Program-made: the position numbers and the translations under genes
Shown: in pieces, positions 2,735-37,127 of the stretch
How the letters are laid out: every line of letters begins with the position of its first letter
How positions within the stretch are numbered: the first letter of the stretch is position 1
Virus record (IMG/VR): IMGVR_UViG_3300035698_010721
Location: 1 to 37,127 of that record
DNA from: a virus
Strand: one strand, 5' to 3'
Length of the DNA stretch: 37,127 bases
Notes under the pieces: model-generated
What the model was told of the DNA's origin: nothing
What the model saw: only the letters and a program-made list of their open reading frames with translations
Databases searched by the model: none

Positions 2735-3431
2735 ATTATTTGAAATAAACTCCGAAACTCGTCTTGCTGAAATTAATTTAAATTGGATTACTACTATTAA
2801 ACAATTTAAAAAATTAGTTAAAAGAGATAAAGGTAGTGAAGGGGATTCAGATGGTAGAAAAAAACTTAAAGCTACTAGAGAGTTTACTTTTATCTACCAT
2901 TATTGTGATTACGGCTCTAAGTTTATTAATTACGAAGAAAAAGAAAAGTTAAAAGCCTCGTTATCTAATGCCGAACTTCCTGAAGACTTGGATATACAGG
3001 CGGACGAGGAGTTAATGGAAGCTCTTATAATTTATAAAAATTTACAAATTACCCCTTCTTTAAAAACATTAGAAGAAGTTAAAGCTACACTTTATAGTGC
3101 TTATAAAGTTTCTAAAAAAATTAGAGAATACTTAGAACAAAAATTAGAAGATTTAGATATAGACCAATATGTAGAAAAATCAGTAAATGGTAGAATGATT
3201 AAAGTTAGTGCTTTAGAAGGAGTGAAAGATAGTTTAGATTATGTTATGAACTTATCAGTTAAGCTACCTAAAAATATAGAAGCTTTAGAGAACTTAGAAG
3301 AAAAGCTTAAAAAAGAAATGACAGATGAAGGTTCTATGCGAGGGGGCAAAGAAAAGGGAATTAGAGAAGATGGCACAAAAAGTAATAATGTTGATCAAGC
3401 TAATCTAGCTAAGGACTTAATGACTTGGTAG
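2721..3431 (+). CDS. Conserved crAss-like protein upstream of TerL; possible small terminase
   Basis: The 236-aa protein has a conserved-looking N-terminal block (residues about 20-75: WITTIKQFKKLVKRDKGSEG, then ATREFTFIYHYCDYGSKF) and a long helical, coiled-coil-like C-terminal half (LEDLDIDQ, LENLEEKLKKEM). Proteins with a similar N-terminal block directly before TerL are a recurring feature of crAss-like phages as I recall them. The location (14-nt overlap with the IHF-like gene, 1 nt before TerL) and helical oligomer-like build make a small terminase subunit or packaging cofactor possible. No helix-turn-helix is obvious, so this is only an inference. The C-terminal 35 residues are polar and probably disordered. 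Confidence 0.7.
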   Translation: MSKIKLFEINSETRLAEINLNWITTIKQFKKLVKRDKGSEGDSDGRKKLKATREFTFIYHYCDYGSKFINYEEKEKLKASLSNAELPEDLDIQADEELMEALIIYKNLQITPSLKTLEEVKATLYSAYKVSKKIREYLEQKLEDLDIDQYVEKSVNGRMIKVSALEGVKDSLDYVMNLSVKLPKNIEALENLEEKLKKEMTDEGSMRGGKEKGIREDGTKSNNVDQANLAKDLMTW

Positions 3432-3432
3432 T

Positions 3433-5538
3433 ATGATATTTAGTAATACTCAATATTTTAGGGAAGCTGCTCTACATTTTAAGAAGTATAAAAGATATAC
3501 TTTAGAGCCTATAGGCAGTAAGAACTGGTACGAGTACTGGGAATTACAAGAAAGAAGATGTATGAACGGTTATAAGGTAGGAGAAACCAAAATAACTGGA
3601 AGACATTATTTTTATATGAATTTCTTTCCAATTAAAAGAGTATTAAATCCCGGAGCTAAGGTAGAAAGAAAGGTAGCAGATTTTGCTGCTTTTTGGGAAA
3701 TAGATTACAATTGGTGGTGGTATAAAGAAATAGCTTGGTACGGTACTACTAAAGACTTTTTAGCAAAGTTAGGATTATTACACGATCCTATTAACTTAGA
3801 TGGAGGTTTTCACTTAAGTTGTTTAAAAACTCGTAGAGCTGGCTTTTCTTATAAAGAGGCTGCGGACGCTGTTTATAATTATATTTTTGTTGATGGTAGT
3901 AAGAGTTATTTTTTTGCAGCACTTTCTGCTTACTTAGATGAAGATGGTATTTTAAATAAAGTAGAAGACGGCTTAAACTGGTTAAATCAAAAAACAGATA
4001 ACTGGTTTAAGCGTAGTCGAATGAAGCATAATACTTTATACCACTATAGGTCTAGTTATATAGATAAACAAGGAGAACATCAAGGGACTTTTAGTGAAAT
4101 TTTTGGTAGAATTATAGATGATCCCAATAAAGCTAGAGGTAAAGATGCTCTTAAAATTACTTTTGAAGAAGCGGGTTCTTTTAAAAATTTAAAAGCTGCG
4201 TTACAGATATGTTTTCCTTCTTTAAAAGATGGTGGTGTTATGACAGGACAAGCTAGTGTGTTTGGTACTGGCGGGGAAGAGGGGGAAGATATAGAAGGCT
4301 TAGAAGAAGTTTTTGAAGACCCTATTACTTGGGATATGTTAGCTTTTACAAACGAATGGGAAGAAGGTTATCACGGTACAGAATGTGGTTTTTTTGTTCC
4401 TTGTTATATGGCAAACATGTCAGTACAAGATGAACAAGGTAATGTTAACATAAAAGAAGGCTTAATATTAGAAGATGCTGAAAGGACAAAAAAGAAAAGA
4501 AGTAAAGACCCTAAAGCTTTAGATAAAAGAATAGCGGAATACCCTAAAGTTCCTACAGAAGCTTTACAACGTATAAGTTTAAATTTGTTTCCAGTTTCCG
4601 AAGCTAGAGCACAAAAAAATAGAATAGTAAGAAGTAAAAGTTTACAAGGTAGTATACAGTACGGGGAATTAGTACGAGAAGATAAAGGTTTAAGATTTAA
4701 AATTAAGTCAAAAGAGGATGCAGTGCCTTTAGACTTTTATCCCCATAAAGAAAAAGACGACTTGTCTGGTTGTATTACTATTTATGATAAACCTTTTTAT
4801 GTTAATGGTGAAATACCAGAAGATTTATACGTAATTATAGTTGATCCTTTTTATAACGATCAAGCAGAATCAAAAGTTTCTTTAGGTGTAGTATATGTAA
4901 TGAAAAGTCAAAGTAACGTTACGCCTTTTATGAACGAACAAATAGTGGCAAGTTATATAGGAAGACCTTTAAGTTTAGACACTTTTTATGAAAATATCTT
5001 TAAACTAGCGGATTACTATAGAACAAAAATACAATCTGAAATAGCAGGAGGGGGTAAAGGTATTATAGATTATGCAAAAACTAATAAGAAATTAGATCAA
5101 TTAATGTATAGACCTGTATATATTAATAACAAAGAGACTCAGACTATTTCACATAATAGAGATTATTTTTTAAATACAAGTACAGATGATGTTAATTTAG
5201 GTTTAACTTATTTTGCAGATTGGCTTAAAAAAGTTATAGGATTTACTGAAGAAGGTGAGGAAATTTGGAATATTCATTATATATTTGATTTAGGTTTACT
5301 AGAAGAGATCATAAAATACCATCCTAAGAAAAATACTGACCGTATTTCTGCTCAAATAGTAGGTAGATATACCCTTAAAGAGATGAAATATGAAGCTGAA
5401 CATCGTAGACAAGACGATGAAAATGAAAATAAAGCCAGTCGAGTTTTTGGTAAAAGGGTGCTTTTTTCAAAAAATAATGATAACAATACAGTAAACACCG
5501 CTTTTATAAATCTTACACATGATGGACAAATGTTATAA
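3433..5538 (+). CDS. terL: Terminase large subunit (TerL)
   Basis: This is the DNA-packaging motor ATPase and genome-cutting nuclease, acting at the portal vertex. The 701-aa length suits crAss-like TerL. The ATPase domain shows a Walker A-like loop LKTRRAGFSYKE (131-142), which is the crAss-like form rather than GxxxxGK(T/S), and a Walker B/catalytic segment ALKITFEEAGSF (239-250, E245/E246). A coupling segment, GQASVFGTGGEEGED (about 272-286), follows. The RNase H-like nuclease has D471 in VIIVDPFYND, E536 in QSEIAGGGKGI and D636 in NTDRISAQIVG as likely metal ligands. The ATG lies 1 nt after the preceding TAG stop, and the portal gene starts 2 nt after its end, so packaging genes are coupled. 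Confidence 0.93.
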   Translation: MIFSNTQYFREAALHFKKYKRYTLEPIGSKNWYEYWELQERRCMNGYKVGETKITGRHYFYMNFFPIKRVLNPGAKVERKVADFAAFWEIDYNWWWYKEIAWYGTTKDFLAKLGLLHDPINLDGGFHLSCLKTRRAGFSYKEAADAVYNYIFVDGSKSYFFAALSAYLDEDGILNKVEDGLNWLNQKTDNWFKRSRMKHNTLYHYRSSYIDKQGEHQGTFSEIFGRIIDDPNKARGKDALKITFEEAGSFKNLKAALQICFPSLKDGGVMTGQASVFGTGGEEGEDIEGLEEVFEDPITWDMLAFTNEWEEGYHGTECGFFVPCYMANMSVQDEQGNVNIKEGLILEDAERTKKKRSKDPKALDKRIAEYPKVPTEALQRISLNLFPVSEARAQKNRIVRSKSLQGSIQYGELVREDKGLRFKIKSKEDAVPLDFYPHKEKDDLSGCITIYDKPFYVNGEIPEDLYVIIVDPFYNDQAESKVSLGVVYVMKSQSNVTPFMNEQIVASYIGRPLSLDTFYENIFKLADYYRTKIQSEIAGGGKGIIDYAKTNKKLDQLMYRPVYINNKETQTISHNRDYFLNTSTDDVNLGLTYFADWLKKVIGFTEEGEEIWNIHYIFDLGLLEEIIKYHPKKNTDRISAQIVGRYTLKEMKYEAEHRRQDDENENKASRVFGKRVLFSKNNDNNTVNTAFINLTHDGQML

Positions 5539-23784: not shown

Positions 23785-26700
23785 ATGGGAAAACGACAAA
23801 AAATTAATCCTATTATATATGATACTAAACAACACGGATTTACAAGCGGTGAATCACAAGATGGAGGTTTAGGTAATATAGAATTAGGCTCTTACGACTT
23901 TGGAGTTAATAGGAACAATATTGATAATTTAGAAACTATAAGAGCTTTTAATCAATCTTCCTTAAGTAAATTTGGTAATCAAGCAGCTAAAACTTTACCT
24001 GCTATTGGGTTAGGTATTGTGGAAAATGCAGGTTATTTAGGTGAATTATTATTTGATTGGGGCGATAAAAAAGATTATACAAACGCTTTAACCGAATTTG
24101 CAAAAGATAAAAGAGAAAAATTAGATGAAGCTTTACCTGTAAATAGGAAAGATAGGGGTGCGGTTTTTGATTTAGATGATCCTGCATGGTGGATAGAACA
24201 TGGTGGAGGTTTAGTAGAGTCTATTGGAGAATTTTTAGTTACGGGTGCAGGAGTAGGTTCAGCTTTAGGTAAAGTCGCTACAGGCACAGCTAAAACTCTT
24301 AGAGCAGGCTTAATAGCAGAAAAAATGTTACAAGGTACTGCTGCTGTAGGCACTTCAGCTTCTCTAGCATACGTTGAAGGGGCTATGAGCGGTTCTCAAG
24401 TCTATAAAGAAGTTTTTGCTGATCAGATGCGAATACACGGTAATAAAGATACCGCAAATCAATTAGCTTCTGAAGCTGCTTCTACTACAGTTAAAACAAA
24501 CACCTTAATCAATACTGCTTTAAATTTAACTTCTGTAATGCCTTTATTTAAAAGTAAAGGGTTTTTAAAAAATAATACGGCATTAAATAGAGGGAATTTA
24601 AAAAAAGAAGAGTATTTAAAAAAATTAACAAATTTACCTGTAGATAATCCTAATAAAGCTTTACGTAGGATTTTAGCTTTTGAGGCTTTACAAGAGGGTG
24701 CGGAAGAACAAGTTAATTTATTTGCAGAAGGTGAAGGTAGAATAGTAGGAGGACTTAAGAAAAAAGAAGGTTCTGCTATGGATAGATTTTTAGATGCAGC
24801 TTTATCGGAAGAGGGCGCATTAAATTTTATTTTGGGTGCAGTAGGGGGTGTAGGTCAAACTTTAGGTACACAATTTGCACCTATTAAAAAAACTACAGAT
24901 AAAGACGGTAAAAGAGAGTTTATTTCTATTAGAGAACAAACAAAAAGAAATAAAGAAGTAGGAGTAGCTAATTATATAGACAGTGTTAAAAAAGATTTTG
25001 CAACTTTAGATACTCTACAAAAAGAGCTAAACGCTGCTGTTTTAGAAGGTGACGAAAGTAAAATTGCTTTAACAAAAGAAAAATTATTTAATATAGGTAC
25101 AATTAATAGTATTAGACAAGGTTTTGGTGAAGCTTTTATACAAGATTTTGAAGAAATTGCAGCTACAGATAACACTATTCAGTCTTTAGAAAAAGACGGT
25201 AGAACTGAAGCAATGCGAAAAGGTTATACTGACTCTATAACAGAAAATTCTTATAAAAATGAAGCTTCTGATAGGGCAAGAACACTTGCACAACTTACTA
25301 GAGAGTATAAAAATATAGAAGAGCAGTTTTCTGATTTAAATTCCATATTTGCTCAAGAAGGTTTTAGAAAACACTTAGCTGCTGAAAGTTATAAAAAATC
25401 TACAGAAGAGATAAATAAGATTATTGAAGAAATAAGACCGCAATTTGAAGGTAATTTTTCTTTATATGAAAGCAGAGTATTAGAACTTGAAGCTAAAAAA
25501 AGAGGACTAAAAAACGCTTTAAGTACTATTAATGATGAAAATTATAAAGATGTTGCTAATACTCTTACGGGAGTAACTTCTGCTGAAGGTCAAGCTAAGT
25601 TAACTAAAAGTATTACACAACAGCTTCTTGCGGTTCAAGAGGAAATTAAAGCAGAAAAAGAAGTTTATAAAAATAAACCTACTAGTGAGGCGGATTTATC
25701 TATTAGTGATTTATTTAAAGAAGCTACTTTCTATTTTGAAACAATTACTCCTTTGGAAGGACAAAGGGCTTTATTTGCCGAAATGGGTAAAGAAATAGGT
25801 AAAGATTATAGAAAACTTTACACTAGAGAAGGTAAAAAAGCTTTTACAGACAGTGTAGGTAAAGAAGTCGAAAAAGTAAATAAGGATTTTCAAAAAAAAT
25901 TGGAAGATAAGTTAGCTAAAGATGCTAAAAAAGAAGAAAAAGTAGCTAAAACTTTAGCTAAAGCAAAATTAGAAGCTGAAAAGAAACAAAAAGATACCGA
26001 AACAGCAGTTAAAACTTTAGAAAAAGAAGCTCCTTCCAGTAATTTTGGTAAAACTAAAGTAGAAGAAGTAGAAGAAGAAGAAAATGTTAGTAATTTTGGT
26101 AAAACTAAAGATCAAATTGAGGCAGACAACGCTAAAAAAGATTCTGATCCCAAGACTAATTCTTCTTCTCTAGAAGCTGATTTAAATAATGAAGACCCTA
26201 AGTTAGATACAGGATTAGAAGGCTATCAAGGTCTTACTAACAAAGAAAGAGAAGAAGAGAAAGAAGCCTTAGATACTCTTATAGAAGAAAATAATAACAC
26301 TAATGAAGGTTTACTTATTAATGCCGCTCCTTCTATTGCTTATTTAGCTCAAGACTATGAAGAAGATGAAGATGGTATAAGAAGTACTTCTAATACAATT
26401 AATGATAATACTAATTTAGATGTATTTAGACCTAATGGTATAATAGTAGGAGATAAAATAACACTTGCTATTGATACGGAAAATGAAGCTTACGAAGAGT
26501 TTAAAGAGGATGCAGAACGTGTACCTATTGTTATTAAAAAGGGTGATAAGATTATAGGTTACGTACATACTATAGATTATATAAACAGAAATAGAGTTGT
26601 TGAGGTAACTTATGACTCTGAAGGCAATCCTACGGATAATTTAGAATTACAAAAAACAAATCTTAAAAAATTAAGAGAATTTTTATACACTTCTAAAACT

Positions 26701-29700
26701 TTTGATAGTATAATAACTAAAAAAACTTTAGGTGTTTTAAATAGAGATTTTAAAGGAGGACGTTATAACGTTAATGAAGCTATGCCTTCGGGAGTTAGTT
26801 TTGCTTTAGGTAAAAACGGAAACCTTTATGTTAACAAAGATGATAGTTATCCTAACCCTTTAGTTAATAAACAAGAGTTTTTAAATGGTCGTTTATATGC
26901 TATACTTCCAACTCCTGTAGAGGGAAAAGAAATGGGCGTACCTTTAGACATTAAAACTTTATCTAAATCTTATGTAGATTCTATGAAAGCAGGTTTAATG
27001 TTATTTTTAGCTGAAGACGATCAAATAAGCGAATCTGGTCAAATAGCTATAAATACTTTAAATACTAAATTTGAAATAGACATTAGGACTTTTGCGGGTT
27101 TAAGAAGTTTCTTTAACAACTTTGTTTACTCTGATGGAAGATTAAATGATACAGAATTTTTAACTGAAGTCTCGGAAAACGTTAAACCTGATGATAAAAA
27201 ATATTTAGAAGTTTTAGGTAATGGTATATTAATAGCTGAAACAAGCAAAAAACCCCTTTCTATTACTAAAAATTCACCTCCTGCACAAGCAGAAGCTTTA
27301 TTAGCTGCTTTAGAAAAACATCTAGCGGGAATGTATATGAATATTGACTTAAATCAAATTAAAAACAATAGACCTATTAAACTTCCTTTATTAAAAGTAG
27401 ATACTGAAACAGGTGAATACGTTACAGAGGAAGAAAGTTACGAATCTTATAATGACTTTATAGCTGCACATAGTTTAACTAATATTATAGCTGCTCCTTT
27501 AAATGATACAGAAGTAACTTACTTCGTACAGCCTACAATGGAGTTTGCTACACCTCAAGATGGTACAGCTCCTGAAATACAACCTAAAATAGTAATTGCT
27601 AAAGAAAATAAGCCTGAAAGTAAAATAACTTTATCAGGCTCTTTAACTAACAGTAAAGTAACAGGAAAAAATAGTGATACTGTAGAAAGTGACGATCTTG
27701 CTGAAAATTTATTAGGTAAACAAAATCAAGTTCAATATAATCTTAAATCAATTACTCTATTAGCTTCTGCTAAAGCGGAACAAGTGTTTATTAAGGGAGA
27801 AAAAGCAGGTTGGGATTTAAATAAAATTTTAACAGAACTTCAAATACCTAAAGAACAAAAGCAAATTATACTAGATAAAAATATTACTGATAGAGAAGAA
27901 ATAATTACATCTTTATTAGCTGATAATAGTTTTGTTGTTGAGGTTAATACTGCTAAAGAAAAACTTAAAACTGGTAATTTGTTATTTGGAGATGATATTA
28001 GAGATGAAAATTTTAAATATGATAGTTATGATAATGATACTTTTTGGAAAGAAAACATAGAAACTGGTGAAATTATTGACTTAACTAAAGAGGAATATGA
28101 AAAGGGTTTACAAAGCATAAATGACAACCTTAATGATAACCCAACCCAGCATTACTCTAACCTAACAGTTTCAGGTGGTACTAACTATACAGAAAATGAA
28201 ATAGCTACACCTGCTATTATACCTAATATTAAAGGTCATGCAGAATTTAGTACTGATAATGGTATAGGTTGGTTCAGAAGTGATGAAGTACAAGGTAAAA
28301 ATTTAAGAGATGAAGATACTTCTATAGAAGGTATATTTGGTAAAGATAATTTTGAAGGAACCAAAACTCGTAGAGTACTAGAAGTACAATCTGATTTATT
28401 TCAAAAAGGTAGGGATAAAAAAGATTTAATATCTTCTGAAAATAAAAAACTTACAATTGGACAGTCTAGTGAAACAGAATTTACTGTTGAAACTTATGAA
28501 GGAGAAAGACTATCGTTCCACGCATCTAAAGAAGACGCTAATAAAGAATTAGCTAGGTTACAATCTTTACCTAATCCAACTAACAACTTTCTACAACTAT
28601 TAAACAAAAAAGGTAATTGGGTTAATTTCTTTATACAATCTATAGTACAAGATAGTGCTAAGAAAGGTTATGAAAAAGTATTATTTCCTACAGGTGAAAC
28701 TGCTGCTAAAGTAGAAGGGCATCAAACTATTGCTGATGAAATTAAAAGTTTAGATACTGAAATAAATGAATTAAAGAAAGGTATAAAAAGTTTTAAACTT
28801 AATGATATAACACACTACTATCTACAAAAAGATAAAAGTGTAGAACCGGGAGAACAACCTAGCATAGAGAAAGACGGTTGGTACGCAGATCCAAAAGATG
28901 TAGGAGTAGACATTTTTCAATTTGAAACAATTCCAGACAATTTAAAAAATTCTATAACAGAAATTGATAGTGCTGTTAAGGGTAAGTTACAAAAGTTAGA
29001 AGCCCAAAAACAAGAGATGAAATCTCAAGGTATTGAAAAACTTAAACCTATTGAAGCTTTCTATTCTAATAGAGTAACTAATATACTTAATAAATTATAT
29101 GACGTTAATGAAGTTACTGATGAATTTGGTAATACTTGGAATGAAATAAATATAGAAGCCTCTTCTATAAGTGCAATAAGTTTAGATTTGCCTGAAGCTT
29201 TACGTTTTGAAAACATACTAGTTACGGGTTATAGTTCTTATACTCAAAATGAGGTTATAGACACTATTAATAGTTACATTCTTAGTAAAATAAGAGATAA
29301 AGGAGAGGCGGGATATCTTGTAGAATTTAATAATTTTATTAATGAAATAAAAGGTATAGACTTAGCAAGATTTCAAAACATTGTAAAAAATCAAAAAGAC
29401 TTTAGAAGGTTAGCTCAAGAAAAATTACAAAGATTAGGTATAGTTAAGAAAAGAAGACTTAATGAAAGAGAAGTAGATTCTGCTATATTATCTTTATCGG
29501 AATTAGATATTTCTGACAATCTACAATGGGAAGACGAGTGGGTATTTAAATTAAATCCAAAAAATACAGCAGGCACACAATTAAAACAATTTTTTGCTTT
29601 TATTGCTGATACTGAATATGATCCTACTAAAGGTACATATTTAGTAAAAGGTACGCATTTAGGTATAGAAAATATACCTAAATATATGTCTTTAGATACT

Positions 29701-32700
29701 GTTTGGGAAGGTGTACTTTCTGTTACTACTGATACTGCCCCTGTATGGGAAGATATTAGAAAAAAACTAGAAGAAGCTTCTCCTTCTAAACCTTATTTAC
29801 ATAGTATCTTAAATGAAATTGATAATTATACAGGAAAAGATAAACAAAGACTTATTAATCAATTTGTAGTTGCTGCCACTAAAACACATAATGGTTATGA
29901 GTTTCTTAAAGTTAGAAAAAATAAAAATGGTACAGTTAACTTTTTTCCTTCAGACTCAAATAGAGGTAATTTAACTAAAACTATTCAAGAGTTTTGGTTA
30001 CAAAATTTTAAACAAACTTTTTTAGTTACAGTTAATAATGAAGGCGATCTTATCATAAATAAAAAAGAAGCAACTAAAATGATAGCTAGAATTAATAATT
30101 CTGATTTATCATTAGACTCTTCTTTAAAAATTTTAGAAAAACTTGGTATTGATGTTAGTCCTGAAGTACATAAAAGTCTTTTTAGGATTAATAAAAAAGA
30201 AAGCTTAAGAAGACAGTACGAAGATAAAGATGGTTTATTCTTTTTAATTAAAGACGGTTTAAGTAATTTAAAAGAAAATGATCTTTTAGAAATTAATCAC
30301 CCTTTAGCAAATAATAGCGGTTTTAAAGCTTTAGCTAGATTGGAAGCTAAATATAATACAAGTACACATTCTAATTCTTTAAGAAATATAAACAATGATT
30401 TAGTTTATGCTTATGGACTAAATAAATTTTTAACTTCCAGAACAAGAGAACTTCTTACTACTAATAAAGCTAAAGAGTTATCTTTAGTTTCTTTTAATAG
30501 TACTTATTTTCAAGACGAGGAAGGTAAAATTCCTTTATACGAAAACTGGTTATACTCTTTACAAAATGATACCTACTTTAAAGAACATTTTAAAGTTTCT
30601 CCTATAGACGGTATGAGAGAAGGTAGAAAAAAAGGAGTATCTATGACAGATATGTACGAAAAAGATCAAGAAGTTTTTAGACTTGCTGCTTATCATAATA
30701 ATTTAAACGGTAGAAAGACTTCTCGTTTAAGTAAATTTGTATACAGTATACCAGGAAAAGCTACTTCTTATCTAGTAACTGCACCTAGACATGACACTTC
30801 TATTGTTATAGATAAAGTTTCATCTAAAGTAACTTTTAATAAATCAAGTTTAGACGCTTTATTTAGTGTAGCTAATTCGGAATTTAAAAGAATTAGAAGA
30901 TTTCAAGAATTACAAGATCAAGGAACTGCCCCTACTACTAAAGGTTACAAAGACGGAGCAAATAAATTTTTCTTTTATGATTTTTTAAATAAAGACTCTT
31001 CTCCTGAAATTTGGAAAGGAGGAAGACTTTTAAGTTACACCTCTACAGTAGAAATAGAAGGTAAACAAGTAGCTGTAGGAAGTATTATAAGAGAAAAAAT
31101 AGCAGAAAATTTTAATCAAGAAATTAAAAGTAAAATAGAGCATTGGAATAAGCTTAATATTATAGGTAAAGACGCTAAAAATAAAAACATATTTAATAAT
31201 GTAGATTCTAATTTTCTTTCAGGAATGGTAGTTGCAAAAACTTCTGCTGCCGATTTTCAAAAGCAATCAATATGGATGGCTACAGATTTTGTAGTAAATA
31301 CTTATTTAGCTAATTTTAATATGCATCAAGCTTTTATTGGCGATCCTGCATTATTTTATAAAAAAGATATTCAAAACACTTGGAGTAACGTAGGTAAACG
31401 TTTGGCTAAAGATATTGCATCAGGCGAAGATTTAGCTCTTTCCAACATTAACGAAGAATTTGTAAGAGTTTATGCTTCTGATAGATTAGTAAATGCTTTA
31501 AATATAGCGGAATTAAGAAACAGAATAAAAGATTTAGCTAGTGATTATGAAGCTATAGAAGGTACGGATGCTGTAGAGTTAACAACATTAAAAGAACATT
31601 TAACCGTTCTTTATCAACAGGGTAGACTTGATACAGATGTATACAATAGAATACTAAATAAGATTAAAACAGAAGAAAACAGTTTAAAGTTAGATCAAAA
31701 AGATTTAGGTATTATTTTACAACCTATGAAACCCGTATATTCTGATAGTGTAGTAGACACCGAAGAAGATATGGTTAGAGTAGAATATATAAAATCTGCA
31801 AGTTTTCCTTTAATTCCCGAACTTACTAAAGGTACAGATTTAGATAATATTAGAATAGCTATGGAAACTTTAGAAAAAACTAAAGAACTTCCAGTAAGAT
31901 TAGCTTTTACTTCTGCTACAAAATTAGGAGGTAGAGAATTTGCTACACTTTTTAATAAAGACGGTAAAACTTCTAAAGATTTAGACCTTACTCCTTTTAG
32001 TATTAATGTACCTCGAAGAGGTTTAAGAATACAACAAGATATTCCATACGATCCAAGTAAAGATAATATATTAAGAGGTTCTCAAATATCTAAACTTTTG
32101 TTTGATAGTATTTTAAATTTAGATGGGTTTTCTTTTGATGGTAAAAAAATTACAGCTAAAGCCTTAAAAGAAAAGTTTTTAGAAGCTAATTATGATCTTT
32201 CTGCTAAAGCGTTAAATGAGCTTAATGAAGATATCACAACAAACGGAGATTTAGACATAAAAAAACTTCGTGGCATTTTACAAGAAGAAGCTATAGATAG
32301 GGATTATAATATTAATGATTTATTAATGCTCTCTTTAGATAGAGCTACAGGTAAATTTGTTATGCCTTTTTGGAGTAGTCCTAGTTCTGATAAATATGAA
32401 TCTTTAGTTACTTCATTGTATACAAATAGAGTAATTAAACAAAAACTTTCAGGTAGAAGTCTAGTATTGGTAAGTGAAGAAGGTTTTGGGGGAAAAAGTG
32501 AAGGTATAGTTTATACTAGTTCTTACGATTCTGAAATAGGATTAAAGCCTATGAGAGTGGAAGACGGTGAAGTCAAAGCTGCACAAGTTATAGTACCACA
32601 AAGGTTTAAAGATAGTCAAGGTGCTCTTTTGGATATAAAGAAATATATTGATAAAACAACTGGTTTATTGGATGTCAATAAAGTTCCAAAAAAGATGTTA

Positions 32701-35700
32701 GAAGCCATAGGGTTTAGGATTCCTACACAGGGTCATAACTCTATGGCTTACCTTGAAATAGTAGGTTTTTTGCCTGAAATTTATCAAAATACAATTATTA
32801 CTCCTAGAAATTTTATTATTCAAATGGGGTCAGATTTTGATGTAGATAAATTATATATTTATGAGCCTGAATATACTGTAGATAATGAAACAGTATTAAA
32901 AGCTAAATCAACTAATAACGACATTATAGATATGCATAAAAGCGTATTAACTAATGAATCCGTTTTTAACAAAATAATTAGACCTTTAGGTTTTGGTTTA
33001 TTGGAAGGAGGTAAAGGTAAAACTAATCTTGCTATAGAAATAGATAATGCTCGAAAAGCTAGATTAGGTGGAGTTAAACCTCTTAACGGTTCTCAAACTT
33101 TTTGGACTCAAAAATATTTAGAATCTTTAGAAGGTAGAGCGGGTATAGGTGTTAAATCTTTAGATTCTACATTTAATTCTATACTACAGGGTACAGAACT
33201 TAGTTTAAAAGGTAATAACTTTATTTCCCCTTTTCTTGTATTTGGAGAAGATAATGGTAATGCTATAAAATTAACAGATTTAGGTAAAGGGGAGACTTGG
33301 GACGGAATTAGAACTATAAATGAAGTTATAGCAGCTTACCAATCTGCTGCTGTAGATAATGAAAAAAATCCTATATTAGGTAAAATTAATTCCAATTCTG
33401 TAACTTTTCCAGTAGAAAGAATACTAGTTCAATTAGGTTTTACTGAAGATTTTGTAGCTTATTTTACTAGTCAAGATATATTAGTAGAATACGCTAAAGA
33501 AGTTAATAATTTAAGAGGCAGTAGTGCTGAAAAAGGAGTAACAGAAGAAACTATTTATAATAAGTTAAAATCTAAATATGTTAATCTTCTTAGAGATAAA
33601 GTTTCCAAAGAAGCTTTTAAATCCGCACAACTTAAAGATGCTGATTTTCCTTTAACTAGGGAGCAAATGAAAGGTAGTATACAAAAAGGAGTAGAATATA
33701 GAAACAAAAAAATAACTTATGAAGAAATACAATTATTAGCTTTAGAAAAATTTAGAAAAGCTGAAATGTATGGCAAAGCTTTAGGTAAAATACAAAGAGC
33801 AGTAAACAGTGATAGTAAGGGTTTAGGTAAAAATTTCTTTGAAGTTGCTGATAAGGTAGTAGATATTCAAAAAGTTATTTATAATAATAAATTAATAGAT
33901 AATGCTTCTGAATTATTGTCAGGTGTTGAAGGGGATTCCTTTTTCTCTAAAAGCATGAATGATATTGCCACCCAATTAGGGCTTATGTCGGCTTACACTA
34001 CCTTTTTGTCAGAAGAGGATAGTTTGTTTCCTTACGAAAAAAGAACAGTGCAGGAGAGTTTAGAACAACTTGAATGGGTATTTGGTAGAGAGCTTTCAAC
34101 TGACAATAAAAAACAAATATGGAACAGTTTAAAATCTTATGTATTTTCTCAAAATAATAATGGGTTATTTGAAGATGCTTCTAAGGAAAGAAGAAAATTG
34201 TTTTTTGATACTAAAGATAATCAATCTCTAGCTACTAGAATTAAAAATTTTGCTAAAACTGTACAAGGTAAAAATAATCCTTTTATAAAAAGACTTAGTT
34301 TTGAGTTTAATCCTAAAAACAGCAATAAACCTGCATTAATTAAATACAATTCTTCGGCAGGAGAAAATTTAGACGAAATTCCAATATATCAAGGATTTAA
34401 AGATTTGTTTAGAGACAGTGCTACTAAACAATTGGGTTTAGATTTAGTTAAATATACTTATCTAAATGGGGGACAGCAACAAGCTAATGAATTTACTAAG
34501 TATGTACCTTTTGAAGAATTAGTTAATTTAGGATTTACTGCAAGCTTAAATAAAGTTAATTTTAATAATCCCGCTTTAGTGGAAACTGTAGTTAATGCAG
34601 ATTTAAATAAATTTACATTACAGTATGTGCAACATAATCCTTATTTAACACAAGAAGTAAATAGTAAATTTACTAAAAAAATAGGAAATTCTTATATCTT
34701 ACCTTCTCCTATGGCTAATGATAAGAATTTTTCAACTATTACAGAAGATCAAGTTGCAAACGGTACGGCTTCTCCTGAATATCCTCCTATAATTAGATTA
34801 ACTTCTCCTGAAGGTGAGATTTTAGTAATGTACAATGAAACTTTAGAAGACGATAGTAGAGTTTATAAACTTATAAGTACACTTAATGAAAGATTTTTTA
34901 ATCAATATGATGCTAATTTAGCTATTGACGCAGTGGCTACTAACCTAACTGCACCTCAAAATTTAACTACACCTAAATCAGAAAAGGTAGTTGAAAAGAT
35001 AACAGTTAAGGTAGCAACAAAATTACCACAAGCTAAAACCACTCCTATAGTTAATAAAACAGTAGATGAAGAAAAAAATCTTTTAGTAGATACTAATGTT
35101 GCTACTACTATTGACAACATTTTAGCTACAAGTATTATACCTCAACATGTAGAATTAGCTAAATTTTTAAAAGCTACAAATTTATTAACTAACTGGACTA
35201 TATCTGAAGATCAGAATATAACAGGTAAGGGTAAAGCTTATACGACTTTAGGCAAAGCGGGTAGAATATCATATAATACTTTAAAATTTAAAAATCCTAC
35301 TGATATTCAGGAATTAGAGCGTTTAATTTTACACGAATCTTTACACGCTGTTACTGTAGGTTCTTTACTTAATCCTCAGAATGCTAAACAAGAACAGGCT
35401 ATAGAATCTCTTAAGAATCTTAGAACTAATATTAGAACTAAGGTAATTAACGGAGAAGTAGCGGGAATGAATGCAGCAGAACTTCAAGAGTTTGAGCAAC
35501 TTTTTGCTAAAAACTTTAAAAGTATGGAAGATATTGCAAGGCTTTCAGAACTTAAAAGTAAGTATTATGGTATAGCCGATCTTAAAGGAATAAATAATAC
35601 TAATTTAGTAATTTCTGAATTTATTACAGGAATACTAACAGAAAAAGGTTTACAGGAAGCAATGAACACTATTCCTTACGATTCTACTAAATCCGTATTA

Positions 35701-37127
35701 GAACGTTTTAAAGAGATTTTAAATAATATTTTAGAAGTGTTAGGAGTTACACCTAATACAAGTTTAAGTAAAGCAATTGAAGATATTCTTTTCTTAGTAG
35801 ACAATGCAGAAGTCGATCCTACTACGATAAGTCAAGAGACAATTAATAGTATAGTACAAGCACAAAATGAAGATTTATCTGAAGCTCAAAGGGAAGAAGA
35901 AAAGTATAAAAAAGTAACTCAAATACTTAAAAGTAGAATAAGTATTGTAGAAAATGCTATCAATAAAGCTAAATTAAATAAAGATTTAGTTAAAGTAAGG
36001 CAATTGGAAGCTAGAAAAGAAGAGCTTGAAAATGATGTTAAAGCTTTAGACGATGAATCTGTACTATCTACCGTATTACAAATAGGAAAAAACGAATTAA
36101 ATAGAGTTAGAAACATTTTAGCAAAACCTCAAGTAAGTACTTCTGATTTAGATTTTGTACTAAGAACTTTAACTTCATGGAAAGATGCTTCTGAGTTTTT
36201 ACTATCTGATTTAGATTTAGATCAAGGGGGTAAAGCGGTTGAATTAATTGCAGCTTTAGAAACTGAAGCCAAGCAATTAAGACGTAAATGGGAAACTATC
36301 ACTAAAGATCATTTATTTGAAATAACTAAAAAAGAATCCTCTGCTAGTGATTTAATTAAAGAAGAAGTGGTAGGTGCTCAAGAGGATATAAGTAGTTTTA
36401 CTTCTTTAATGCTAGATTTATCTAGATCAGATAATGTTATATTAGGAGTTGTAGATAAGTTTATAAGAAAAGCAAACAATTCCGCAAATGCCGAGGCTCA
36501 AATTGTTCAAAAACAAGTAGAAGAGTATGTAGTAAGGTTAAACACTAAAGAGGCTTTTAAAAAAGATAAATTTTATGTTTTTGCTCAAGAAGATCAAGAT
36601 GGAAAATTAACTGGAAATTTAGTAAGTGAATATAATCAAGATTACTATGATACTAGAAAAAAACTATTAAATACCGCTAGAAAAGCAAAAAATAGTAAAA
36701 GTTGGACTAATTTTTTTAATTGGAAAAAAGAAAATCACACTATTGTAGATATACGTAAATTATATAAAGAAACTACTGAAGGTACATTAGAGTTTGTAAA
36801 TAATTCTTCTTATATATTAGAGTTAGAAAAAGAAATAGGAGCAGCAAAAGTTGTTAAAGAGTTAGAAAAACAAGAACAAAAAATAGCTAACTATAATGCA
36901 GATTTATTATCTAAAGAGGATTCAGTAAAAGACGAACCTGACGGTTTTCGGACTTTTGAAGAATGGAAAGTTAAACATAATCCTGTATTTTATATGCAAA
37001 ACATTTTAGACAACAATTACGTTTCTACTAAAATAAACGGAAAATTTGTTAAAAATGAAGGGTACAATTATTCTATAGAAGTTCCTAAATCTAAATGGAA
37101 CGATTCTAAGTATAGTAAAATTCAAGA
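23785..37127 (+). CDS. Giant virion RNA polymerase polyprotein (partial, 3' end outside window)
   Basis: One frame runs from ATG 23785 to the window end: 13,343 nt, 4,447 codons, no stop (translated by hand). Order: residues 1-365, glycine-rich with hydrophobic stretches; 380-775, charged coiled coil and acidic linker; 776-1450, unrecognised mixed region; 1453-1791, polyvalent-protein module; 1792-2480, unrecognised; about 2480-3760, RNA polymerase core with DFDVD (3017-3021); about 3800-3960, zincin-like domain with HESLH (3850-3854); 3960-4447, helical region with further crAss-like blocks. crAss-like virion RNA polymerases (phage phi14:2 gp66, about 2,180 aa) are ejected into the host to transcribe early genes. 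Here the polymerase is part of a much larger chain. The true length is unknown. Confidence 0.9.
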   Translation, partial: MGKRQKINPIIYDTKQHGFTSGESQDGGLGNIELGSYDFGVNRNNIDNLETIRAFNQSSLSKFGNQAAKTLPAIGLGIVENAGYLGELLFDWGDKKDYTNALTEFAKDKREKLDEALPVNRKDRGAVFDLDDPAWWIEHGGGLVESIGEFLVTGAGVGSALGKVATGTAKTLRAGLIAEKMLQGTAAVGTSASLAYVEGAMSGSQVYKEVFADQMRIHGNKDTANQLASEAASTTVKTNTLINTALNLTSVMPLFKSKGFLKNNTALNRGNLKKEEYLKKLTNLPVDNPNKALRRILAFEALQEGAEEQVNLFAEGEGRIVGGLKKKEGSAMDRFLDAALSEEGALNFILGAVGGVGQTLGTQFAPIKKTTDKDGKREFISIREQTKRNKEVGVANYIDSVKKDFATLDTLQKELNAAVLEGDESKIALTKEKLFNIGTINSIRQGFGEAFIQDFEEIAATDNTIQSLEKDGRTEAMRKGYTDSITENSYKNEASDRARTLAQLTREYKNIEEQFSDLNSIFAQEGFRKHLAAESYKKSTEEINKIIEEIRPQFEGNFSLYESRVLELEAKKRGLKNALSTINDENYKDVANTLTGVTSAEGQAKLTKSITQQLLAVQEEIKAEKEVYKNKPTSEADLSISDLFKEATFYFETITPLEGQRALFAEMGKEIGKDYRKLYTREGKKAFTDSVGKEVEKVNKDFQKKLEDKLAKDAKKEEKVAKTLAKAKLEAEKKQKDTETAVKTLEKEAPSSNFGKTKVEEVEEEENVSNFGKTKDQIEADNAKKDSDPKTNSSSLEADLNNEDPKLDTGLEGYQGLTNKEREEEKEALDTLIEENNNTNEGLLINAAPSIAYLAQDYEEDEDGIRSTSNTINDNTNLDVFRPNGIIVGDKITLAIDTENEAYEEFKEDAERVPIVIKKGDKIIGYVHTIDYINRNRVVEVTYDSEGNPTDNLELQKTNLKKLREFLYTSKTFDSIITKKTLGVLNRDFKGGRYNVNEAMPSGVSFALGKNGNLYVNKDDSYPNPLVNKQEFLNGRLYAILPTPVEGKEMGVPLDIKTLSKSYVDSMKAGLMLFLAEDDQISESGQIAINTLNTKFEIDIRTFAGLRSFFNNFVYSDGRLNDTEFLTEVSENVKPDDKKYLEVLGNGILIAETSKKPLSITKNSPPAQAEALLAALEKHLAGMYMNIDLNQIKNNRPIKLPLLKVDTETGEYVTEEESYESYNDFIAAHSLTNIIAAPLNDTEVTYFVQPTMEFATPQDGTAPEIQPKIVIAKENKPESKITLSGSLTNSKVTGKNSDTVESDDLAENLLGKQNQVQYNLKSITLLASAKAEQVFIKGEKAGWDLNKILTELQIPKEQKQIILDKNITDREEIITSLLADNSFVVEVNTAKEKLKTGNLLFGDDIRDENFKYDSYDNDTFWKENIETGEIIDLTKEEYEKGLQSINDNLNDNPTQHYSNLTVSGGTNYTENEIATPAIIPNIKGHAEFSTDNGIGWFRSDEVQGKNLRDEDTSIEGIFGKDNFEGTKTRRVLEVQSDLFQKGRDKKDLISSENKKLTIGQSSETEFTVETYEGERLSFHASKEDANKELARLQSLPNPTNNFLQLLNKKGNWVNFFIQSIVQDSAKKGYEKVLFPTGETAAKVEGHQTIADEIKSLDTEINELKKGIKSFKLNDITHYYLQKDKSVEPGEQPSIEKDGWYADPKDVGVDIFQFETIPDNLKNSITEIDSAVKGKLQKLEAQKQEMKSQGIEKLKPIEAFYSNRVTNILNKLYDVNEVTDEFGNTWNEINIEASSISAISLDLPEALRFENILVTGYSSYTQNEVIDTINSYILSKIRDKGEAGYLVEFNNFINEIKGIDLARFQNIVKNQKDFRRLAQEKLQRLGIVKKRRLNEREVDSAILSLSELDISDNLQWEDEWVFKLNPKNTAGTQLKQFFAFIADTEYDPTKGTYLVKGTHLGIENIPKYMSLDTVWEGVLSVTTDTAPVWEDIRKKLEEASPSKPYLHSILNEIDNYTGKDKQRLINQFVVAATKTHNGYEFLKVRKNKNGTVNFFPSDSNRGNLTKTIQEFWLQNFKQTFLVTVNNEGDLIINKKEATKMIARINNSDLSLDSSLKILEKLGIDVSPEVHKSLFRINKKESLRRQYEDKDGLFFLIKDGLSNLKENDLLEINHPLANNSGFKALARLEAKYNTSTHSNSLRNINNDLVYAYGLNKFLTSRTRELLTTNKAKELSLVSFNSTYFQDEEGKIPLYENWLYSLQNDTYFKEHFKVSPIDGMREGRKKGVSMTDMYEKDQEVFRLAAYHNNLNGRKTSRLSKFVYSIPGKATSYLVTAPRHDTSIVIDKVSSKVTFNKSSLDALFSVANSEFKRIRRFQELQDQGTAPTTKGYKDGANKFFFYDFLNKDSSPEIWKGGRLLSYTSTVEIEGKQVAVGSIIREKIAENFNQEIKSKIEHWNKLNIIGKDAKNKNIFNNVDSNFLSGMVVAKTSAADFQKQSIWMATDFVVNTYLANFNMHQAFIGDPALFYKKDIQNTWSNVGKRLAKDIASGEDLALSNINEEFVRVYASDRLVNALNIAELRNRIKDLASDYEAIEGTDAVELTTLKEHLTVLYQQGRLDTDVYNRILNKIKTEENSLKLDQKDLGIILQPMKPVYSDSVVDTEEDMVRVEYIKSASFPLIPELTKGTDLDNIRIAMETLEKTKELPVRLAFTSATKLGGREFATLFNKDGKTSKDLDLTPFSINVPRRGLRIQQDIPYDPSKDNILRGSQISKLLFDSILNLDGFSFDGKKITAKALKEKFLEANYDLSAKALNELNEDITTNGDLDIKKLRGILQEEAIDRDYNINDLLMLSLDRATGKFVMPFWSSPSSDKYESLVTSLYTNRVIKQKLSGRSLVLVSEEGFGGKSEGIVYTSSYDSEIGLKPMRVEDGEVKAAQVIVPQRFKDSQGALLDIKKYIDKTTGLLDVNKVPKKMLEAIGFRIPTQGHNSMAYLEIVGFLPEIYQNTIITPRNFIIQMGSDFDVDKLYIYEPEYTVDNETVLKAKSTNNDIIDMHKSVLTNESVFNKIIRPLGFGLLEGGKGKTNLAIEIDNARKARLGGVKPLNGSQTFWTQKYLESLEGRAGIGVKSLDSTFNSILQGTELSLKGNNFISPFLVFGEDNGNAIKLTDLGKGETWDGIRTINEVIAAYQSAAVDNEKNPILGKINSNSVTFPVERILVQLGFTEDFVAYFTSQDILVEYAKEVNNLRGSSAEKGVTEETIYNKLKSKYVNLLRDKVSKEAFKSAQLKDADFPLTREQMKGSIQKGVEYRNKKITYEEIQLLALEKFRKAEMYGKALGKIQRAVNSDSKGLGKNFFEVADKVVDIQKVIYNNKLIDNASELLSGVEGDSFFSKSMNDIATQLGLMSAYTTFLSEEDSLFPYEKRTVQESLEQLEWVFGRELSTDNKKQIWNSLKSYVFSQNNNGLFEDASKERRKLFFDTKDNQSLATRIKNFAKTVQGKNNPFIKRLSFEFNPKNSNKPALIKYNSSAGENLDEIPIYQGFKDLFRDSATKQLGLDLVKYTYLNGGQQQANEFTKYVPFEELVNLGFTASLNKVNFNNPALVETVVNADLNKFTLQYVQHNPYLTQEVNSKFTKKIGNSYILPSPMANDKNFSTITEDQVANGTASPEYPPIIRLTSPEGEILVMYNETLEDDSRVYKLISTLNERFFNQYDANLAIDAVATNLTAPQNLTTPKSEKVVEKITVKVATKLPQAKTTPIVNKTVDEEKNLLVDTNVATTIDNILATSIIPQHVELAKFLKATNLLTNWTISEDQNITGKGKAYTTLGKAGRISYNTLKFKNPTDIQELERLILHESLHAVTVGSLLNPQNAKQEQAIESLKNLRTNIRTKVINGEVAGMNAAELQEFEQLFAKNFKSMEDIARLSELKSKYYGIADLKGINNTNLVISEFITGILTEKGLQEAMNTIPYDSTKSVLERFKEILNNILEVLGVTPNTSLSKAIEDILFLVDNAEVDPTTISQETINSIVQAQNEDLSEAQREEEKYKKVTQILKSRISIVENAINKAKLNKDLVKVRQLEARKEELENDVKALDDESVLSTVLQIGKNELNRVRNILAKPQVSTSDLDFVLRTLTSWKDASEFLLSDLDLDQGGKAVELIAALETEAKQLRRKWETITKDHLFEITKKESSASDLIKEEVVGAQEDISSFTSLMLDLSRSDNVILGVVDKFIRKANNSANAEAQIVQKQVEEYVVRLNTKEAFKKDKFYVFAQEDQDGKLTGNLVSEYNQDYYDTRKKLLNTARKAKNSKSWTNFFNWKKENHTIVDIRKLYKETTEGTLEFVNNSSYILELEKEIGAAKVVKELEKQEQKIANYNADLLSKEDSVKDEPDGFRTFEEWKVKHNPVFYMQNILDNNYVSTKINGKFVKNEGYNYSIEVPKSKWNDSKYSKIQ
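28141..29160 (+). other. Polyvalent-protein module inside the giant protein (residues about 1453-1791)
   Basis: The segment begins PTQHYSNLTVSGGTNYTENE (GG-x-NY at 1465-1469), continues with LEVQSDLFQKGR (E1533, Q1535, D1537), then WVNFFIQSIVQDSAKKGYEKVLFPTGET (near 1620-1640), a coiled coil, and FYSNRVTNILNKLYDVNEV plus a W1785 strand. This succession matches the 'PGGxNYxE ... EIQSDxxQ ... A...GyDki.w.tG ... fYd..l' module I know from very large phage and mobile-element polyvalent proteins. Its biochemical activity is not established to my knowledge. Proline codons differ from the flanks (5 of 10 are CCA/CCG inside 28141-28980). Confidence 0.7.
31222..35064 (+). other. Virion RNA polymerase core (residues about 2480-3760)
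   Basis: Conserved crAss-like RNA polymerase blocks appear in order: YLANFNMHQAFIGDPALFYK (ending near 2525), QPMKPVY (2646-2652), SFPLIPELTKG, GFRIPTQGHNSM (2976-2987), the metal-binding GSDFDVDKLYIY with D3017, D3019 and D3021, GRAGIGVKSLDSTF (from 3117), SAAVDNEKNP, and NSDSKGLGKNFF (from 3341). In phi14:2 gp66 the corresponding catalytic triad is DFDID in a single chain carrying both double-psi barrels, related to cellular polymerases and to QDE-1-like RNA-dependent polymerases. All three aspartates are present, so the enzyme is expected to be active. Domain limits are approximate. Confidence 0.88.
35182..35760 (+). other. Zincin-like metallopeptidase domain in the giant protein (residues about 3800-3992)
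   Basis: ERLILHESLHAVT places the HExxH motif at 3850-3854 (H3850, E3851, H3854) in a predicted helix. A downstream helix, LVISEFITGILT, offers E3945 as a third zinc ligand, about 90 residues later, which fits the gluzincin-like HExxH...E layout. It follows the polymerase core directly. Zincin-like domains occur in some phage virion and polyvalent proteins; possible roles are self-processing of the giant chain or cutting of a host or scaffold protein. Activity and substrate are inference. Confidence 0.65.

What the first reader, a model, noticed from the sequence alone, without database searches (positions are those of the whole stretch)
28120..29165. Polyvalent-protein module with foreign codon use inserted upstream of the RNA polymerase core
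Residues about 1453-1791 match the GGxNYxE/EVQSDxxQ/fY module of phage polyvalent proteins. By hand count, proline codons other than CCT are 5 of 10 in 28141-28980, against 0 of 9 in 27301-28140 and 1 of 8 in 29161-30000; CTA, TAC and CAC also seem enriched. This suggests a recent horizontal gain of a domain that would be delivered into the host with the polymerase, perhaps a host-directed effector.
Basis: partly seen in the sequence, partly recalled or inferred. Interest (0 to 1): 0.72.

Follow-up and report, generated by a model that had tools for sequence, protein, structure and literature searches.

The report
Relocatable acetyltransferase-fold domain in phage polymerase
A giant phage protein that carries an RNA polymerase likely to be injected into bacteria also carries a domain predicted to fold like acetyltransferase enzymes; related phages keep the same domain in different places on or next to the polymerase or lack it, which suggests interchangeable cargo, but nothing shows that it arrived recently.

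Summary
The motifs are real and correctly placed (EVQSD at residue 1533, FY at 1759-1760). The module is larger than reported, about residues 1313-1797. The proline counts are exactly right, but the codon argument fails: whole-region codon test p=0.08, no outlier in a scan, and runs of prolines this odd arise in 56% of shuffles.

The protein is a crAss-type virion RNA polymerase (homologue of phi14:2 gp66, 6vr4, E=1.4e-73). The module has no Pfam or PHROG family. A model of a compact relative (pLDDT 75) matches almost only GNAT-fold proteins, but none of 23 modules has the canonical acetyl-CoA loop in the right place.

Of 80 contigs picked by their polymerase, 6 carry the module. Carriers hold it upstream of the polymerase (window, L034, L096, L007, L018), in a loop just after DFDxD (L009), at the C-terminus (L042) or in a nearby gene. 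Module and polymerase trees conflict: horizontal exchange and relocation. In the window it is not shown to be recent: L034 has it at the same junction, although L035 lacks it. Other phages hold a Nudix domain, or possibly an ADP-ribosyltransferase, in that slot. Best reading: an exchangeable, probably injected effector; catalysis and target unproven.

The parts
23785..37127 (+). Giant ORF (4447 aa in the window, no stop before the window end) that carries the crAss-type virion RNA polymerase
   Evidence: RNAP profile vs 6vr4_A E=1.4e-73; PHROG 16227 virion structural protein E=2.8e-63
23785..27546 (+). N-terminal region (residues 1-1254); a separate gene in some relatives, where a crAss record annotates it 'putative RNAP associated protein fused to zincin protease'
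   Evidence: tblastn to crAss phages cr11_1/cr110_1; separate upstream ORFs in L012, L014 and L007
27721..27978 (+). Helical N-terminal part of the module (residues ~1313-1398, YNLKSI...LQIPKEQKQ...FVVEVNTA)
   Evidence: conserved with the core in most carriers; a second copy of 1313-1365 in L007, and a foreign insertion at 1365/1366 in L007 and L009
28141..29175 (+). GNAT-fold core of the module (residues ~1453-1797)
   Evidence: A1/A2/A4 alignments; models; fold matches
28174..28194 (+). GGTNYTE motif
   Evidence: G, G, N, Y invariant in A4
28381..28413 (+). EVQSDLFQKGR motif at the end of a core strand (GNAT beta-4 equivalent)
   Evidence: E, Q, S, L, F, Q, R invariant; strand in the models
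28603..28620 (+). NKKGNW at the start of the long core helix, where GNATs have the acetyl-CoA P-loop; not the canonical [RQ]xxGx[GA]
28693..29040 (+). Variable coiled-coil hairpin inserted in the core between KVLFPTG and EAFY
   Evidence: helices in models; length-variable in alignment
29053..29076 (+). EAFYSNRV at the start of the alpha-4 equivalent; Phe and Tyr invariant
29176..35250 (+). RNA polymerase proper, beginning with a helical bundle (VTGYSSYTQNEV...) at which the RNAP gene starts in L010 and L035; downstream limit approximate
32833..32847 (+). DFDVD polymerase catalytic motif; the loop just after it is the slot used by the module in L009
35332..35346 (+). HESLH, a zincin-like HExxH motif (residues 3850-3854); the module sits after the equivalent region in L042, or in the next ORF in most other carriers
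   Evidence: motif only, function not tested

Best explanation
The module (residues ~1313-1797) is an exchangeable effector domain of crAss-type phages carried by proteins of the virion RNA-polymerase block. It has a GNAT (acetyltransferase-type) fold with a coiled-coil hairpin inserted before the last core helix. It occupies the junction between the upstream RNAP-associated region and the polymerase proper, one of several length-variable slots in these giant proteins; other phages put the same module in the loop after DFDxD, at the C-terminus or in a nearby gene, or put another domain (Nudix; probably an ADP-ribosyltransferase) in the same junction. Most likely it is packaged with the polymerase, ejected into the cell, perhaps released by a zincin peptidase, and transfers an acyl-type group to a host target in the first minutes of infection, working like T4 Alt but with a different chemistry. 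Shown here: the module and its boundaries, predicted GNAT fold, conserved polar residues, patchy distribution, relocation, horizontal exchange among relatives. Inferred: packaging and ejection (from crAss001 and phi14:2), catalysis, target, peptidase release. It is not shown to be a recent gain in this phage.
For: Fold: second model (pLDDT 74.8) has GNAT strand/helix order; of the top 50 VIA rows nearly all are GNATs (best Z 8.7, 124 residues, 3.9 A, 1y9k; AAC(6')-Ib, GCN5, AtaT, TacT), the rest being ICL2 C-terminal domains, Rv1916 and LasI; Foldseek agrees in kind (best E=0.011), and viral hits are large polyvalent proteins. Conservation: 42 invariant positions over 22 modules. Relocation. 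Horizontal exchange: module mean identity 50% against 26% for RNAP over 11 contigs; module clade L031+L042+L044+L096 (100/99), while the RNAP data reject L042+L044+L096 (p=2e-61); presence/absence needs >=12 changes on well-supported branches. Slot: N-region to RNAP-start distance 172-616 aa in relatives that lack the module there, 650 in the window, i.e. about 160 plus the ~490-aa module; Nudix in the L083 slot (E=5e-15; 2e-15), weak ART-PolyVal in L036 (E=8e-4, below cut-off). Delivery by homology: crAss001 gp47/49/50 found in virions (PMC10172136), phi14:2 RNAP translocated with DNA (PMC7886860).
Against: The canonical acetyl-CoA loop [RQ]xxGx[GA] is absent between beta-4 and alpha-3 in all 23 modules (the two regex hits, in L031 and L044, lie elsewhere), so acyl transfer is not established. 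Foldseek E-values against PDB are weak (best 0.011) and VIA Z is 7.7-8.7, near the range that common arrangements reach; coordinates could not be inspected for an active site. The modelled compact relative (L034) is the most divergent module (45% to the window); the window's own model is poor (pLDDT 60). The polymerase tree is a quick tree with long branches. No assay or virion proteomics is known to me for these phages.
Confidence: 0.55

Rival explanations
1. The module is a non-catalytic GNAT-fold domain: a structural, docking or ejection-handling part of the cargo proteins (for example binding DNA, the portal or other cargo), which explains why it stays near the polymerase block but needs no fixed place.
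For: No canonical acetyl-CoA loop; long variable coiled-coil insert; in all 12 distinct module-selected contigs with enough sequence the polymerase is in the same or the adjacent ORF.
Against: Patchy absence from most polymerase relatives argues against an essential structural part; enzyme-like invariant polar residues (Glu, Gln, Ser, Arg, Asp, Tyr); slot alternatives include an enzyme (Nudix).
Confidence: 0.27
2. The module spreads as a passenger of homing-endonuclease-driven gene conversion and has little function of its own.
For: In L028 the module is split by a GIY-YIG ORF (1240-1977) and preceded by a second one.
Against: GIY-YIG genes lie by the module only in L028; in the other carriers searched there is none, or it is far away (about 5 kb or more). 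Other endonuclease families were not searched systematically. Strong conservation at ~50% identity across contigs implies selection.
Confidence: 0.08
3. One reading: a recent horizontal gain of the module by this phage lineage, visible as foreign codons.
For: Pro and CTA codon excess nominally p=0.03 and 0.006; L035, sister of L034 in the RNAP tree, lacks the module; window and L034 modules only 45% identical, less than window-L018 (64.5%) or window-L001 (66.5%).
Against: Whole codon usage not unusual (p=0.077), proline run expected by chance (56%); L034 has it at the same junction, and module data do not reject window+L034 (p=0.44).
Confidence: 0.1

Closest known systems
Polyvalent proteins of phages and conjugative elements (Iyer et al. 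2017, PMC5512222)
   Same: Very large multi-domain phage protein with polymerase, probable peptidase and protein-modifying-type domains; same GGxNYxE / ExQSDxxQxGR / FY string as a Dolichospermum phage polyvalent protein; that paper proposes coeval delivery and release by peptidase domains.
   Different: That paper names the N4-like virion polymerase among phage-type domains and does not mention crAss; here the polymerase is the crAss DFDxD type. Its two GNAT families are RimI-like; this module has no sequence match to Pfam GNAT families.
GNAT acetyltransferases (GCN5, AAC(6')-Ib, AtaT/TacT)
   Same: Predicted fold and order of core strands and helices.
   Different: No canonical acetyl-CoA loop; long hairpin between beta-5 and alpha-4; N-terminal helical part; at most 12% identity in the VIA structural alignments.
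crAss-like phage virion RNA polymerase (phi14:2 gp66, 6vr4; crAss001 gp47/49/50)
   Same: Polymerase core, E=1.4e-73.
   Different: The window fuses the RNAP-associated region, module, polymerase and following region in one ORF; a GNAT-fold module in the crAss polymerase was not found in the two crAss papers searched (PMC7886860, PMC10172136) or by a literature search.
T4 Alt (head-packaged ADP-ribosyltransferase)
   Same: Proposed way of working: enzyme packaged with DNA and acting at once on the host (described in PMC5512222).
   Different: Different fold; here fused to the polymerase; activity unproven.

Membership tests
crAss-type virion RNA polymerase | Homology to phi14:2 gp66 across the DFDxD core | tested here: met
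   6vr4_A E=1.4e-73, 251.7 bits; DFDVD at 3017
crAss-type virion RNA polymerase | Packaged in the virion and ejected | not testable with these tools
   Inferred from homologues (PMC10172136, PMC7886860)
Phage polyvalent-protein GGxNYxE/ExQSDxxQ/FY domain | Ordered motif string GGxNYxE ... ExQSDxxQxGR ... FY in a very large phage protein | tested here: met
Catalogued Pfam/PHROG/NCBIfam domain family (including LPD families) | Match above cut-off to a curated model | tested here: not met
   No match over cut-off: Pfam, NCBIfam; only E>=0.001 single-member hits in PHROGs
GNAT superfamily (fold) | beta-strands 2-4, alpha-3, beta-5, alpha-4, beta-6/7 core | tested here: met
   Model of a relative; matches (prediction only, Z 7.7-8.7)
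GNAT acetyltransferases (enzymes) | Acetyl-CoA pyrophosphate loop [RQ]xxGx[GA] between beta-4 and alpha-3 | tested here: not met
   Absent there in all 23 modules; hence filed as GNAT-fold, not as a GNAT acetyltransferase
GNAT acetyltransferases (enzymes) | Acyl-CoA-dependent transfer activity | not testable with these tools
   -
Intein | Recognisable Hint-type domain or splice-junction residues | tested here: not met
   No Hint family in Pfam for the window ORF; no terminal HN-[CST] junction seen by eye at the L009 insertion

The most novel reading that the evidence does not exclude
crAss-type virion RNA polymerases act as an injection chassis with several defined slots (junction before the polymerase, loop after DFDxD, C-terminal junction) that phages refill with different effector domains (GNAT-fold, Nudix, ADP-ribosyltransferase), and the GNAT-fold module is a new transferase type without the usual acetyl-CoA loop.
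Probability: 0.4. Interest if true: 0.75.

Novelty: new variant of a known kind. Interest (0 to 1): 0.55.

Why it matters
If right, the giant virion polymerases of the crAss-like group are also delivery vehicles for exchangeable effectors, which gives concrete residues and slots to test in culturable crAss-like phages, and names a phage domain family that present libraries miss.

Tried and rejected
Foreign codon use: rejected. Intein: rejected. Group I/II intron or known RNA in the window or L028: none in Rfam. Homing endonuclease as the general vehicle: GIY-YIG lies by the module only in L028; other endonuclease families not searched. First fold search was swamped by coiled-coil matches; GNAT toxins appeared only at ranks 46, 47 and 50, so a compact relative was modelled instead. 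One search used wrong coordinates (outside the L031 module), so its blank in plasmids says nothing. tblastn of the L034 and L031 modules in phage records: nothing. L033 as a bridge to more viral contigs: nothing. ART in the L036 slot by PDB sequence search: nothing. L050 slot: no family. Direct and inverted repeats around the module: only imperfect short ones (at most 29 nt, at most 93%), none at its two edges, so no insertion footprint. Search for LPD38 in the window: uninformative, nothing rang even in controls.

Full report
Setting. The window is a 37.1-kb viral contig with TerL, portal, major head protein and virion proteins, followed by one ORF open from 23785 to the end. A polymerase profile made from it and relatives hits phi14:2 virion RNA polymerase 6vr4 with E=1.4e-73, and its N-terminal region matches crAss records annotated as RNAP-associated protein fused to a zincin.

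Observation. Motifs and coordinates are right. The codon claim does not hold: counts are exact, but total codon usage is ordinary (p=0.077, no outlier in the scan), and a run of ten prolines with five non-CCT codons occurs elsewhere in the gene and in 56% of shuffles. CTA (p=0.006) and TTC (p=0.01) are nominally enriched, without correction and picked after the fact.

What the module is. Relatives show the unit begins near residue 1307-1313, with a helical part that ends in a strand, and runs to ~1797. Forty-two positions are invariant in 22 modules. No Pfam, PHROG or NCBIfam family recognises it. The window model was poor (pLDDT 60). Its fold search was led by coiled coils, with GNAT toxins at ranks 46, 47 and 50. 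A compact relative, L034, gave pLDDT 75; its matches in PDB were almost only GNATs in both searches. Z is 7.7-8.7 and Foldseek E at best 0.011, so the fold is likely, not certain. The canonical acetyl-CoA loop is missing between the corresponding strand and helix in all 23 modules. I therefore call it GNAT-fold and do not file it as a GNAT acetyltransferase.

Distribution and place. Among 80 contigs fetched by their polymerase, the module lies in or near the polymerase in L034, L042, L096 and the two contigs of L001/L005, and elsewhere on the L044 contig: six of 80. L099 has a 28-residue end-fragment match. Many contigs are fragments, so absence is not proof. Places: upstream of the polymerase in the same ORF (window, L034, L096, L007, L018); in the loop directly after DFDxD (L009), a loop that varies by up to ~360 residues in relatives without the module there; C-terminal (L042); in the next ORF (L001, L003, L004, L006, L016, L017, L024, L025, L027, L029); further downstream (L044). 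In the window the distance from the N region to the polymerase start is 650 residues, against 172-616 in relatives without the module there; 650 minus the ~490-residue module is close to the shortest natural slot. Other slots hold a Nudix domain (L083, E=5e-15; confirmed) or a probable ADP-ribosyltransferase (L036, ART-PolyVal E=8e-4, below cut-off).

History. Module identity averages 50% where polymerase identity averages 26%. The module tree joins L031, L042, L044 and L096 (100/99), while polymerase data reject L042+L044+L096 (p=2e-61); presence needs at least 12 gains or losses on well-supported branches. That is horizontal exchange in the family. For the window itself the picture is open. 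L034, the nearest polymerase, has the module at the same junction, and window+L034 is not rejected by the module (p=0.44). But L035, which groups with L034 in the polymerase tree (96*), lacks it, the L034 module is the most distant from the window's (45%), and in polymerase data window+L034 without L035 is rejected (p=0.0015). One ancestral gain with loss in L035, or separate gains, both fit. Nothing shows recency.

How it works. Homologues of these proteins are found in crAss001 virions (PMC10172136), and the phi14:2 polymerase enters the cell with the DNA (PMC7886860). Polyvalent proteins are thought to bring several activities at once and to be cut by peptidase domains (PMC5512222). The window ORF has one HExxH motif (3850), and in L009 and L044 an HEYAHH stretch directly follows the module. 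The likely mechanism is an injected protein- or small-molecule-modifying enzyme; the rival is a non-catalytic cargo part. Neither is tested.

Literature. No paper in the held library contained 'crass', 'GNAT' and 'virion RNA polymerase' together, and none was found for domain insertion in crAss-like polymerases. That is a limited search of open-access papers.

Noticed in passing
L028:162-827 and 1240-1977: The module is split by a GIY-YIG endonuclease ORF at a variable loop, and a second GIY-YIG ORF precedes it. Both module fragments restart with a similar leader, M(A/S)CKY(K/T)Y.NK.Y(S/T).EE.
   Followed up: partly
L053:9349-9822: The crAss-type polymerase is split in two ORFs with a ferritin-like gene between them (PF00210 E=2.7e-12). 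L058, L069, L076 and L083 show the same split with a gap of similar length, but their middle genes were not scanned. In all five the second half restarts with a leader resembling that in L028.
   Followed up: partly
L009:9281-10000 (ORF residues ~3094-3333): A second, ordinary GNAT domain (Acetyltransf_7 E=4e-5, just under its cut-off) is nested within the module, between the parts equivalent to window residues 1365 and 1366.
   Followed up: partly
L009 residues ~3750-3850 and the L044 contig just after the module: A zincin-like HEYAHH stretch directly follows the module in two phages with different module positions, so the two may travel together.
   Followed up: no
L083:4198-6045: A Nudix domain sits in the junction slot between the N region and the polymerase.
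   Followed up: yes
L030, L031: The module occurs on small contigs binned as a Woesearchaeota and a Patescibacteria genome; possibly misbinned phage DNA, not checked.
   Followed up: no
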